Assembly: GCF_000425945.1 (NCBI RefSeq)
Contig: NZ_KE384481.1
Coordinates: forward strand, 573,704 to 637,703
DNA: 64,000 bases
Source of the DNA: Candidatus Solirubrobacter pratensis
GTDB lineage: Bacteria > Actinomycetota > Thermoleophilia > Solirubrobacterales > Solirubrobacteraceae
Direction: 5' to 3'
Both the position numbers and the translations under genes were made by a program. Each line of letters begins with the position of its first letter. The stretch's first letter is position 1. The notes under the pieces were generated by a model. That model was not told the DNA's origin. It saw only the letters and a program-made list of their open reading frames with translations, and searched no databases. Positions 61,160-64,000 of this stretch are shown here, in pieces.

Positions 61160-61825
61160 ATGGCGACGGTGACCCGTCCCGCCCCGCCGCCTGTCCACGG
61201 CGTCCCCGAGCCCCTCCACGGCGGCCCGCTCGCGCTGCTGCGGTTCATGCGCCGCAACGGGATGCTGAACACGAAGTACGCGCGGCTGCTGGTGCGCTGG
61301 GCGTGGCTGAAGCTGCGCTGGGGCAGGCGCCTGCAGACCGACGGCATCTGCTTCGTCGGCCCGGGCGTCAAGCTCGAGCTCGGCCGCGAGGCGGTGCTGC
61401 GGCTCGGGCGCTGGTCGTGGATCGGCCACGGGACGAAGATCCGCGTCCACGAGGGCGAGTGCGAGATCGGCGCGAAGACGGTGCTCGGGCAGGAGTGCAC
61501 GATCTCGGCCTTCCAGCACATCTCGATCGGCCGCGAGTGCATCGTCGCCGACCGCGTGATGCTGATCGACTTCGACCACGGCGTCGTCGAGGTCGAGCGC
61601 CCGATCCGCCACCAGGGGATCTACAAGCGCGACGTCGACGTCGGCAGCAACTGCTGGGTCGGCTACGGCGCCTGCATCCTGCGCGGCGCGCAGGTCGGCG
61701 ACAACGTCGTGATCGGCTCCAACACCGTCGTGACCAAGGACGTGCCGTCCAACGCCGTGGTCGCCGGCTCACCCGCGCGCGTTCTGCGCATGCGCGAGGA
61801 GCCGGCGACGCTGCGGTGGTCTTAG
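61160..61825 (+). CDS. Left-handed beta-helix acyltransferase
   Basis: About 221 residues. Hexapeptide repeats from about residue 65 onward (IGHGTKI, IGAKTVLGQ, VGDNVVIGSNTVV) with the catalytic His in DFDHGV and the typical end VPSNAVVAGSPARVLRM. Resembles WbbJ/maltose-O-acetyltransferase-like enzymes, probably acetylating a sugar in the cell envelope. Basic N-terminus (RLLVRWAWLKLRWGRR) may associate with the membrane. Four-base tail-to-tail overlap with the Rpf-like gene. Confidence 0.87.
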   Translation: MATVTRPAPPPVHGVPEPLHGGPLALLRFMRRNGMLNTKYARLLVRWAWLKLRWGRRLQTDGICFVGPGVKLELGREAVLRLGRWSWIGHGTKIRVHEGECEIGAKTVLGQECTISAFQHISIGRECIVADRVMLIDFDHGVVEVERPIRHQGIYKRDVDVGSNCWVGYGACILRGAQVGDNVVIGSNTVVTKDVPSNAVVAGSPARVLRMREEPATLRWS

Positions 61826-62484
61826 GCTCCGCAGACCGGCCAGGGGGCCGTGCCGCGGGCGGCGTAGAGCTTGGCCGCCATCGCGTCCTGCGTGGCCTCG
61901 TCGGCCTTCGCGGGATCGCCGGTGCCGCCGAGCGAGCGCCAGGTGGAGCGCGTGAACTGGTACTTGCCGCGGTAGTGACCGTCGCGCGAGACGGCGGTCG
62001 GGTCGCCGCCGGACTCGCACTGGGCGATCTTGGCGAGCGCCGAGGCGGCGTCGCCCGAAGCCGGCGCGGTGCCGGCGGAGTCGAGCGAGCGCGAGCCGTC
62101 CTGCGTGCCGCCGAGGCCGAGCGCCGCGATCGTGGCGGCGCCGGCGACGCCGTCGGCCTGCAGGCCGTGCGCGCGCTGGAAGCGCTTGAGCGCCCGGCGC
62201 GTCTGCGGGCCCGCGATGCCGTCGGCGGCGACACCGAGCGCGCTTTGGATCTGGGCGACGGTGGCGGTCGTCGCCGCGGCCGGCGTGGACGCCGTCGCGC
62301 CGCCGCTCTGGTCTTGCGCGAGCGCGCCGCCCGCGGCGATCGTCAGCGAGGCGAGTAGGACCCCGGCGCCCGTGCGGCCGGACCAGCGTCTGCGACGAGC
62401 GCGGTTGGCCGCGAAGCGGCGTGCCCGCGAGGCGCGCAGCGACTCGAGCCATGGGGCATGGGACGACAGATCGGTTGATGGCAC
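61822..62484 (-). CDS. Resuscitation-promoting-factor-like transglycosylase with peptidoglycan-binding domain
   Basis: 220 residues. Basic N-terminus, one signal-anchor helix (about 40-56), PG_binding_1 repeat (about 75-122: LGVAADGIAGPQTRRALKRF), linker, and a C-terminal Rpf fold with catalytic Glu157 in IAQCESGGDPTAV and the Rpf disulfide pair C156/C218. Cleaves peptidoglycan and aids growth restart. Preceded by a c-di-AMP (ydaO-type) riboswitch, the usual control of rpf genes in actinobacteria. Confidence 0.92.
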   Translation of the reverse strand: MPSTDLSSHAPWLESLRASRARRFAANRARRRRWSGRTGAGVLLASLTIAAGGALAQDQSGGATASTPAAATTATVAQIQSALGVAADGIAGPQTRRALKRFQRAHGLQADGVAGAATIAALGLGGTQDGSRSLDSAGTAPASGDAASALAKIAQCESGGDPTAVSRDGHYRGKYQFTRSTWRSLGGTGDPAKADEATQDAMAAKLYAARGTAPWPVCGA

Positions 62485-62494
62485 AGCGTGGAGC

Positions 62495-62655
62495 TCCCTT
62501 TGGTCTCATCACGCCTACGGGGTTAGCTGTCGGGCTCGCGCGATGACCTGCGCTACGCCGTCGCATGACGGCGATTCGCCCCCGGAGCCTTGACCATCGG
62601 CTCCTTTGGTTCCCCCGCTCCCCACCGCCTGAGCGGCGGGGACTCGGCTCTTTGA
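62495..62655 (-). ncRNA. c-di-AMP (ydaO/yuaA) riboswitch upstream of the Rpf-like gene
   Basis: Minus-strand leader of about 160 bases with the conserved blocks of the class in order: GAGCCGAGTCC, GGGGGAACC, GGGCGAATCGCC and GACAGCTAACCCCGTAGGCG, then GAGACCAAAGGGAG just before the start codon. These correspond to the pseudo-twofold three-helix junctions that bind two c-di-AMP molecules. In this class high c-di-AMP turns the downstream gene off. The rest of the 236-base gap (62485-62720) is promoter and linker. Confidence 0.85.
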
Positions 62656-62720
62656 AGGCGCCGTACCTTACACGCCCGCATCCCGGAACGATCGTCCGCG
62701 CCCCGGCCGGCGTTGAACCG

Positions 62721-64000
62721 TCACGGTTGGACGAAGGCCCACTTCGCCGGCCGCGGCGCGAGATTGCGCAGCTCAGGGGCGCCTTCTCCGGCCAGCGCGG
62801 CGAGGAACGCGGCGCGGTGTCCCTCGAAGCGCTCTCGCGGGTAATCGCCGGCGGTGCCGGCATCGATCAGGAAGGCCCAGTCGGAGCTCTGCAGGGCCAG
62901 CAGCTCGCGCAGCGCGCGCTCGGACGCGGCGCCGCCGAGCGCCGCCAGCTCGGCCGCGCGCTGGGCCCAGGCGAGCTCGCCGCTCCAGGTGCGCAGGTCG
63001 CGCCCATTGCCCCACGACGTCGGTGGCGGATCAGGCGCCGGGCGCGGGTCCTCGACGACCGGCGGCGCGAGCTCGACGCCGGCCGCGTCCGCCTGCTCGA
63101 GCACGGCGCGCAGGAACGTGACGCCCTCGTGCCAGTGGTGGCCGAACAGCTCGGTGTCGAAGGCGACGAGCGTGTCGCGCTGCAGGTGCCAGAGGAAGTC
63201 GCGCGCGTCGGCGGCGGCCTGCTCGGCCGCGCGATCGGGGTCATACGGCGTGCCGTCGACGGCCCATGCCTGGTGGGCGCGCGCGGTGAGGCGGCGGGTG
63301 TCGCGGTAGGCGCCGTGTGCCGGGTAGCCGTCCGGCGCCCACACGCGGTCGATCGCGGCGCGGTCGAGCGGGAGCAGCGCGATCCCCGCGGCGCTCAGCC
63401 GCGGCGCGTGGTCGTCGGGGCCCAGCACGTCGGTCCAGTCGACGCACGTGACATGGACGCCGGCCTCGGCGAGCAGCCGGTCCAGCCACGGCGCGTGCGC
63501 GCACTCGGGCAGCCAGAAGCCGCCGTCCCAGGTGCCGAAGCGCGTGCGGAACGCCTCCACGCCGGTCTCGACCTGCAGGCGCACGCCGGCGTCCGTCGCC
63601 AGGAGCGGGAGCACCGCGTGCGTCGCCGACGAGGTCCAGCTCACGTGCGGCGCGAACGCGTCCAGCAGGTCGCCGCGCCGCTCCAGCGCGGCAGCGGCCT
63701 GCGCGTACCGGGCGGCGGAGTACTCGAGCGCGGCGCTCGGCGCCTCGGCGAGATCGAGCGCGTGCGACGCGGGCCGGACGTCGCGCAGGAACGCGAGGCA
63801 GCGCTCCAGCACCCCGTCGGCCTCGAGCTGGTCGGCCAGCACGGGCGTGATCGAGAGCGTCATGCGCCCGGGCCGCTCGTCGAGCAGGTCCAGCAGCGGG
63901 AGGTAGCTCGTGGCGATCGCCTCCCACAGCCACTCCTCGCCGAACGGCCACGTGCCGAACCCCTCGACGTACGGCATGTGGGTGTGCAGGACGATGGAGA
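62721..64000 (-). CDS. GH57 1,4-alpha-glucan branching enzyme-like protein (N-terminus beyond window)
   Basis: At least 425 residues; the frame continues through the window edge, where the first GH57 motif HTHMPYVEGFGTWPFGEEW begins with VLHTH from bases past 63977, so the ATG at 63977 is not the true start. Catalytic nucleophile Glu in GGFWLPECAHAPW and acid Asp in LVAFDTELFGHHW are present (158 and 274 counted from that Met). Makes alpha-1,6 branches in glycogen or trims alpha-glucans. The C-terminal DUF1957 helical part is complete (ELAWAQRAAELAALGG). Upstream of the Rpf gene, same strand. Confidence 0.9.
   Translation of the reverse strand, partial: SIVLHTHMPYVEGFGTWPFGEEWLWEAIATSYLPLLDLLDERPGRMTLSITPVLADQLEADGVLERCLAFLRDVRPASHALDLAEAPSAALEYSAARYAQAAAALERRGDLLDAFAPHVSWTSSATHAVLPLLATDAGVRLQVETGVEAFRTRFGTWDGGFWLPECAHAPWLDRLLAEAGVHVTCVDWTDVLGPDDHAPRLSAAGIALLPLDRAAIDRVWAPDGYPAHGAYRDTRRLTARAHQAWAVDGTPYDPDRAAEQAAADARDFLWHLQRDTLVAFDTELFGHHWHEGVTFLRAVLEQADAAGVELAPPVVEDPRPAPDPPPTSWGNGRDLRTWSGELAWAQRAAELAALGGAASERALRELLALQSSDWAFLIDAGTAGDYPRERFEGHRAAFLAALAGEGAPELRNLAPRPAKWAFVQP

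What the first reader, a model, noticed from the sequence alone, without database searches (positions are those of the whole stretch)
62495..62655. c-di-AMP riboswitch controlling an Rpf-like enzyme with a peptidoglycan-binding domain
The class is known to precede rpf genes in actinobacteria; its presence here extends it to what seems a Thermoleophilia genome, and ties cell-wall remodelling to c-di-AMP. The terminal GGGAG of the switch lies about 14 bases before the start codon, so translation may be the step controlled.
Basis: partly seen in the sequence, partly recalled or inferred. Interest (0 to 1): 0.55.

Follow-up and report, generated by a model that had tools for sequence, protein, structure and literature searches.

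The report
c-di-AMP riboswitch before an Rpf gene
A known kind of RNA sensor for the signal molecule c-di-AMP sits just ahead of a cell-wall-cutting enzyme gene in an actinobacterium; it is one of nine such sensors in this genome, and comparison with relatives suggests that it shuts off translation through a pseudoknot next to the ribosome landing site.

Summary
Window 62659-62498 (-) matches Rfam RF00379 (67.4 bits, cut-off 38, E 1.8e-13) and ends 13 nt before the GTG of a 220-aa protein with a peptidoglycan-binding and an Rpf/transglycosylase domain. It is a member of a known class in its known actinobacterial setting. The genome holds nine such switches and one DisA. In the class survey 49 of 149 genomes had hits, including all 33 listed of the own order. 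Of 137 leaders fetched from that order (of 213 hits), 115 precede wall-related genes, 107 have the predicted start 8-40 nt after P1, and 1 has a terminator-like element. In family f9 of the same class, 12 of 12 fetched leaders have a terminator and precede genes that read as potassium transport. The loop-tail pseudoknot covaries strongly. Its 3' strand overlaps or abuts the Shine-Dalgarno in 77 of 87 scorable leaders, against 64 +/- 3 with swapped loops. Best mechanism: c-di-AMP stabilises the pseudoknot and blocks ribosome binding (OFF). The window copy is looser: its Shine-Dalgarno lies 3-7 nt beyond the pseudoknot. Ligand binding and direction are inferred.

The parts
62665..62670 (-). TAAGGT, candidate -10 box just upstream of the aptamer (no -35 box was examined)
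   Evidence: Sequence. TANNNT lies within 32 nt upstream of P1 in 121 of 137 order leaders against 36 +/- 5 (maximum 54 of 200) in shuffles.
62498..62659 (-). c-di-AMP (ydaO/yuaA) riboswitch aptamer
   Evidence: RF00379, 67.4 bits, model 1-134.
62538..62553 (-). last aptamer hairpin GCGC-AGGUCAUC-GCGC; its loop 62549-62542 holds the 5' strand of the pseudoknot
   Evidence: loop-tail covariation.
62502..62510 (-). tail GAUGAGACC, 3' strand of the pseudoknot in one of two registers (UCAUC/GAUGA or GGUC/GACC)
   Evidence: for GAUGA; the GACC register is read by eye, by analogy with L153 GGUCUU/GAGACC.
62494..62498 (-). Shine-Dalgarno GGGAG
   Evidence: Sequence; 9 nt between it and the start codon.
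62486..62514 (-). possible competing local hairpin GCGUG (62514-62510) / CACGC (62490-62486) that overlaps P1 and encloses the Shine-Dalgarno
   Evidence: In the predicted minimum-free-energy fold, positions assigned by eye; this kind of pairing is not in excess across 107 order leaders.
61822..62484 (-). rpf-like gene, GTG start, 220 aa, N-terminal basic stretch plus hydrophobic segment (by eye)
62119..62226 (-). PG_binding_1 domain (residues 87-122, best stretch of two)
   Evidence: PF01471 E 9.8e-17.
61831..62043 (-). Rpf / transglycosylase-like catalytic domain (residues 148-218)
   Evidence: PF06737 E 4e-18; PDB 2n5z RpfC E 6.5e-12.

Best explanation
A c-di-AMP riboswitch of the ydaO class, probably transcribed from its own promoter at the edge of the aptamer, controls an Rpf-type muralytic enzyme. 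When c-di-AMP is high the aptamer folds, including the pseudoknot between the loop of its last hairpin and the tail just after P1. That pseudoknot blocks 30S binding at the adjacent GGGAG/GTG, so the enzyme is not made. When c-di-AMP falls the tail is free and the gene is translated. Shown by computation: class membership, gene, short spacing, no terminator found, covariation of the pseudoknot, and closeness of its 3' strand to the Shine-Dalgarno in most scored relatives. Inferred: promoter, ligand binding, OFF direction, translational level, and steric blocking in this copy, where the Shine-Dalgarno lies 3-7 nt beyond the pseudoknot strand.
For: RF00379 full-length hit. Rpf and PG-binding domains. 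DisA (467.8 bits, cut-off 201) in the genome. In the order, 107 of 137 predicted starts lie 8-40 nt after P1 and 1 of 137 leaders shows a terminator, against 0 of 12 and 12 of 12 in family f9. Pseudoknot score 13.83 against 11.48 +/- 0.19 (maximum 12.08 of 200) with swapped tails, n 137; 14.22 against 11.57 +/- 0.23 on 96 distinct loops; 13.63 against 11.42 +/- 0.20 on the 107 near-start leaders. Two other pairings under the same test on those 107: anti-P1 11.67 against 11.37 +/- 0.20; Shine-Dalgarno with the 5' aptamer 11.39 against 11.34 +/- 0.16. The Shine-Dalgarno overlaps the pseudoknot strand in 65 of 87 and follows within 3 nt in 12 more; with swapped loops the sum is 63.6 +/- 3.2, maximum 71 of 200. 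The Corynebacterium glutamicum nlpC switch is reported as OFF and probably translational, with a CTCC/GGAG pseudoknot proposed (PMC9960051).
Against: Overlap alone is weak evidence: 65 observed against 57.7 +/- 3.5 (maximum 69) with swapped loops, because loops are pyrimidine-rich and Shine-Dalgarno sites purine-rich in all of them. The window's own Shine-Dalgarno is outside the pseudoknot. Its own loop-tail helix is only 5 bp, and 6 of 151 foreign tails fit its loop at least as well. A review reports that the Streptomyces rpfA switch works by premature transcription termination (PMC10117811). The whole leader does not fold better than shuffles (z -0.99; pseudoknots not modelled). A local hairpin exclusive with P1 is predicted for this leader, and such pairing scores 14.5 or more in 4 of the 7 Rpf-type leaders tested, of 12 known.
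Confidence: 0.7

Rival explanations
1. It is a c-di-AMP OFF switch acting on transcription: ligand binding stops RNA polymerase in or just after the leader without a canonical terminator, as reported for Streptomyces coelicolor rpfA.
For: PMC10117811 passages report termination for rpfA; PMC9960051 relays terminated transcripts in vitro with E. coli RNA polymerase and a lack of a canonical terminator there.
Against: No terminator-like hairpin with U-run in 136 of 137 order leaders, while the same scan finds one in 12 of 12 f9 leaders. The scan's reach is limited: it found none in 60 scored leaders outside the class, 18 of which have no near start codon. Only 13 nt lie between aptamer and start codon.
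Confidence: 0.18
2. Ligand binding turns translation ON: without ligand the P1 3' strand joins the local hairpin GCGUG/CACGC around the Shine-Dalgarno, and the folded aptamer disrupts it.
For: The hairpin is in the predicted fold; such pairing scores 14.5-17.5 in 4 of 7 Rpf-type leaders tested, two of which (L100, L134) are near-duplicates.
Against: No excess of such pairing in 107 order leaders. The Shine-Dalgarno would sit mostly in an open loop. The actinobacterial nlpC switch tested in PMC9960051 is OFF.
Confidence: 0.08
3. A decayed or chance aptamer look-alike with no function.
For: No expression data exist here.
Against: E 1.8e-13 with the core segments kept; gene-plus-switch pairs in two named MAGs and Rpf-domain genes behind 12 of the 137 order switches.
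Confidence: 0.02

Closest known systems
c-di-AMP riboswitch upstream of rpfA, Streptomyces coelicolor / S. venezuelae (St-Onge et al., as relayed in PMC10117811 and PMC9960051)
   Same: Same RNA class and same kind of target; no canonical terminator reported; seven and six wall hydrolases with the switch in the two species (PMC10117811).
   Different: Reported as transcriptional; another class of Actinomycetota; the window protein carries PG_binding_1 next to the Rpf domain (whether RpfA lacks it was not checked).
C. glutamicum nlpC riboswitch (PMC9960051)
   Same: Actinobacterial, cell-wall target, no canonical terminator, translation thought to be the step, pseudoknot with the ribosome site proposed.
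   Different: Target is NlpC/P60. There a CTCC is proposed to be released from a stem on ligand binding; here comparison points to the loop-tail pseudoknot of the aptamer itself.
ydaO aptamer of RNA-Puzzle 12 (PDB 4QLM/4QLN, sequence printed in PMC5393176)
   Same: Core motifs and a stable pseudoknot; CUCCUUCG in the last loop and CGAAGGAG in the tail can be read from the printed sequence.
   Different: A crystallised aptamer from outside the Actinomycetota (recalled); expression platform not treated in the passages seen.

Membership tests
RF00379 c-di-AMP riboswitch | Covariance-model score above the gathering cut-off over the full model | tested here: met
   67.4 bits against 38, model 1-134.
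RF00379 c-di-AMP riboswitch | Conserved core segments (GGGGAACC, GGGGCGAAUC, CAGCUAACC) | tested here: met
   Alignment.
RF00379 c-di-AMP riboswitch | Loop-tail pseudoknot (described for the solved aptamer) | tested here: inconclusive
   Strong across the order; only 5 bp in the window copy, matched or beaten by 6 of 151 foreign tails.
RF00379 c-di-AMP riboswitch | Located 5' of a gene on the same strand | tested here: met
   Ends 13 nt before GTG 62484.
RF00379 c-di-AMP riboswitch | Binds c-di-AMP | not testable with these tools
   Only indirect: the genome encodes DisA.
Actinobacterial translational c-di-AMP switch (C. glutamicum nlpC type) | No intrinsic terminator; aptamer close to the start codon | tested here: met
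   No terminator call for L005 (the window copy), start at +28 after P1.
Actinobacterial translational c-di-AMP switch (C. glutamicum nlpC type) | Shine-Dalgarno can pair with the aptamer | tested here: inconclusive
   Overlap in 65 of 87 scorable relatives, but 57.7 +/- 3.5 with swapped loops; in the window the site is beside the pseudoknot, not in it.
Resuscitation-promoting factor | Rpf catalytic domain | tested here: met
   PF06737 E 4e-18; RpfC/E/B structures.
Resuscitation-promoting factor | NCBIfam equivalog cut-off for Rpf or RpfC | tested here: not met
   59.1 against 200 (RpfC) and 35 against 180 (Rpf): a domain-level relative, not those named proteins.
Resuscitation-promoting factor | Muralytic or resuscitation activity | not testable with these tools
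   None.

The most novel reading that the evidence does not exclude
In Actinomycetota the c-di-AMP aptamer needs no separate expression platform: its own ligand-stabilised loop-tail pseudoknot carries or abuts the Shine-Dalgarno, a platform used for a cell-wall regulon of 2-10 switches per genome in one order, while another family of the same class keeps a terminator platform for potassium-uptake genes. The same RNA class would have split in both target and mechanism within one class of bacteria, and the reported Streptomyces rpfA termination would be secondary to translational control.
Probability: 0.45. Interest if true: 0.55.

Novelty: new member of a known kind. Interest (0 to 1): 0.4.

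Why it matters
The switch-rpf pair itself is expected from other Actinomycetota. What adds value is the comparison. An order with 2-10 c-di-AMP switches per genome, mostly on wall-related genes, makes c-di-AMP a plausible master signal for wall turnover there. The covarying pseudoknot next to the ribosome site gives a concrete, testable answer to the mechanism question that the C. glutamicum paper left open (PMC9960051, Discussion).

Tried and rejected
Conserved anti-P1 hairpin: no excess over swapped partners in 107 leaders, though some Rpf-type leaders score high. Ribosome site pairing with the 5' part of the aptamer (a literal reading of the CTCC idea of PMC9960051, for example the GGCUCC strand of the window's GGAGCC/GGCUCC hairpin): no excess, and that hairpin sequence is not kept in the other Rpf-type leaders printed. 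Terminator in the window leader: none found. Folding z-score of the leader: uninformative.

Limits of the survey: 152 of the 231 RF00379 hits counted were fetched, taken from its listing of the better-scoring hits plus the remaining copies of the own genome, so weak switches are under-represented (137 of 213 in the order, 12 of 13 in f9). One search drew 149 genomes from the class and did not list 80 negative genomes. Start codons, Shine-Dalgarno sites and reading frames come from a home-made script that prefers starts with a good Shine-Dalgarno; 30 of 137 order leaders gave a start further than 40 nt and some of these are surely miscalls. The pseudoknot was scored as the best contiguous helix, with the same freedom given to the swapped controls; swapping does not keep relatedness, and the two null pairings serve as a guard against that. 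Outside the class 63 loci were examined; 3 of them (family f33) failed the core motif and were not scored; no terminator was found in the other 60, though 18 have no near start, so the terminator scan may miss some. Two near-duplicate proteins (L024, L126) were left out of the Pfam tally. Pfam results there are tallies; which member is KdpA, permease or TrkH is my reading of the sequences.

Papers: PMC9960051 passages and the Discussion in full; PMC10117811, PMC5393176 and PMC7266159 passages only; all others as search listings only. Three papers on the ydaO structures and Streptomyces rpfA were asked for and are not held. Searches for c-di-AMP + riboswitch + Thermoleophilia gave 0 papers; Solirubrobacter + riboswitch gave 1, listing only, a Mycobacterium genome paper; c-di-AMP riboswitch + pseudoknot + Shine-Dalgarno gave 4, none with c-di-AMP in its title; ydaO + pseudoknot + riboswitch gave 24, 20 listed; c-di-AMP riboswitch + translation + ribosome binding site + Streptomyces gave 0. 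The library lacks most subscription papers.

Full report
What is there. One Rfam family is found in the 64-kb window above its gathering score: the c-di-AMP riboswitch RF00379 at 62659-62498 on the minus strand, 67.4 bits (cut-off 38), E 1.8e-13, full model. GGGAG at 62498-62494 and a GTG start at 62484 follow. The 220-aa product has an N-terminal basic stretch and hydrophobic segment (by eye), PG_binding_1 and the Rpf-type transglycosylase domain; the best solved matches are RpfC, RpfE and RpfB. It stays far below the NCBIfam equivalog cut-offs for Rpf and RpfC, so it is an Rpf-domain protein rather than those named proteins. Of 8 loci found in the named genome collection, one is 50% identical over residues 2-218 (a Thermoleophilaceae MAG) and one partial match lies in a Solirubrobacterales MAG; both have RF00379 5' of the match. 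The other six match only around the peptidoglycan-binding domain and come from other bacteria. The order name of the window's genome is inferred from this; its record is unnamed.

The regulon. The genome (6.64 Mb, 28 contigs) has nine RF00379 matches above the cut-off and one DAC-domain match, a clear DisA; DHHA1 proteins are present, one of 330 aa, but I did not assign a phosphodiesterase. Besides the Rpf gene the predicted targets are two NlpC-like proteins with a YGGGH..DCSG motif (one with a PG-binding domain; the motif part has no Pfam hit), two M23 peptidases (one with PG binding), an NlpC/P60 with PG binding, a DPBB (RlpA-like) protein, a GH16 protein and one small protein without any family. 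Of 149 genomes sampled in the class, 49 have hits; all 33 listed genomes of the own order are positive with 2-10 each (213 hits by adding the rows); no negative of the order is shown, but 80 negative rows were not listed. I fetched 152 of the 231 hits of that search. For the 137 in the order, 115 downstream proteins carry a wall-related domain by my script, 10 more belong only to the small-protein family, and 12 to neither; 28 of the 115 rest only on the YGGGH-type motif. The Pfam tally over 150 of the 152 agrees: PG_binding_1 41, M23 38, DPBB 19, Rpf-type 12.

Two expression platforms in one class. In family f9, 12 of 12 fetched leaders (of 13 hits) have a terminator-like hairpin with a U-run and the predicted start lies 87-279 nt after P1. 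The genes read as KdpA (4), permeases that I take for KimA-like (7) and TrkH (1), from the tally and my reading of the sequences. In the own order 1 of 137 leaders has a terminator-like element (inside a reading frame) and 107 of 137 predicted starts lie 8-40 nt after P1. One f8 leader (L093) precedes a similar permease with a start at +22 and no terminator, so platform and target are not strictly linked. L024, binned in another f8 genome of 76% completeness and 5% contamination, is nearly identical to f9 locus L023 and may be contamination.

The pseudoknot. The loop of the last aptamer hairpin pairs with the tail after P1 (for example CUCUUUC/GAAAGAG, CUCGUU/AACGAG, GUCUC/GAGAC, CUUUCC/GGAAAG, GGUCUU/GAGACC). 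Score 13.83 against 11.48 +/- 0.19 for swapped tails, maximum 12.08 of 200 (137 leaders); for 83 leaders without the common UCUUU loop 13.42 against 10.64 +/- 0.22; for 96 distinct loops 14.22 against 11.57 +/- 0.23. The same test on two other possible pairings gave no excess. Of the 107 near-start leaders 90 have a helix of at least 5 bp; 87 of these also have a scored Shine-Dalgarno, which overlaps the pseudoknot strand in 65, follows within 3 nt in 12, and does neither in 10. With loops swapped among the leaders the numbers are 73.7 with a helix, 57.7 +/- 3.5 overlapping (maximum 69) and 63.6 +/- 3.2 for overlap plus within 3 nt (maximum 71), so the joint count of 77 is above chance but overlap alone is not clearly so. 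The strong evidence is the covariation; the position of the ribosome site beside it is a fact of layout.

Outside the class. No swapped control was made for these. The terminator scan found none in the 60 scored, though 18 have no near start. The pseudoknot itself is not new: the RNA-Puzzles paper speaks of a stable pseudoknot in the ydaO aptamer and its printed sequence shows the same loop-tail match (PMC5393176).

The window copy. Loop AGGUCAUC can pair with the tail GAUGAGACC as UCAUC/GAUGA or GGUC/GACC. The first leaves 7 nt before GGGAG, the second 3 nt. Its own tail reaches a score that 6 of 151 foreign tails equal or beat. So the window is a weaker case than most relatives and blocking would be steric. 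The minimum-free-energy fold, which cannot contain pseudoknots, shows a competing hairpin GCGUG/CACGC around the ribosome site; I treat it as an open local feature. A -10-like TAAGGT at 62670-62665 fits the order-wide pattern: TANNNT within 32 nt upstream of P1 in 121 of 137 leaders, 36 +/- 5 in shuffles. The upstream GH57 gene ends 61 nt before the aptamer, so read-through from it cannot be excluded.

How it most likely works. High c-di-AMP folds the aptamer, its tail is held in the pseudoknot, the ribosome cannot reach GGGAG/GTG, and the Rpf-type enzyme is not made. The OFF direction and translational level rest on analogy with C. glutamicum nlpC (PMC9960051) and on the lack of detected terminators; a review places Streptomyces rpfA at transcription termination (PMC10117811), which is the main rival.

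Verdict. Observation confirmed, interpretation supported. As a thing it is a new member of a known kind. The comparative result, one RNA class with two kinds of target and two platforms inside one bacterial class and a covarying pseudoknot beside the ribosome site, is more interesting than the single finding and is stated as the novel case. In my literature searches, of whose listings I opened only four papers, the one precedent I saw for the ribosome-site pseudoknot is the proposal in PMC9960051; the library lacks most subscription papers.

Noticed in passing
L228 5556-2180 (-), own genome C3; L229-L234, L041, L133, L149, L150: One switch target (L004 family) is a small protein with no Pfam or NCBIfam hit and a C-terminal hydrophobic segment. 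A type I glutamine synthetase gene was found in 10 of the 11 loci searched (not in L233) and a carboxymuconolactone-decarboxylase-like gene in 6 of 11; in L015 the gap to glnA is 13 nt. In L012 the same N-part is fused to PG-binding and RlpA-like domains.
   Followed up: partly
L010, L011, L013, L014, L019-L021, L023, L025, L037, L060, L074: Family f9 of the same class uses the same riboswitch with terminators before genes that read as potassium transport, a Firmicutes-like arrangement.
   Followed up: yes
window 62721-63977 (-): GH57 / branching-enzyme-type gene ends 61 nt upstream of the aptamer on the same strand; co-transcription with the rpf gene is possible.
   Followed up: no
L155 (Bifidobacterium breve MAG contig end): A peptidoglycan-binding fragment 62% identical to the window protein over 55 residues at a contig end; origin unclear, possibly a binning artefact.
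   Followed up: no
L039 aptamer (G000 C4:66198-66329): The ninth copy matches only model positions 12-118, with a predicted start codon 67 nt after P1 and AAGGAGG before a GH16 gene: a decayed or differently built switch.
   Followed up: no
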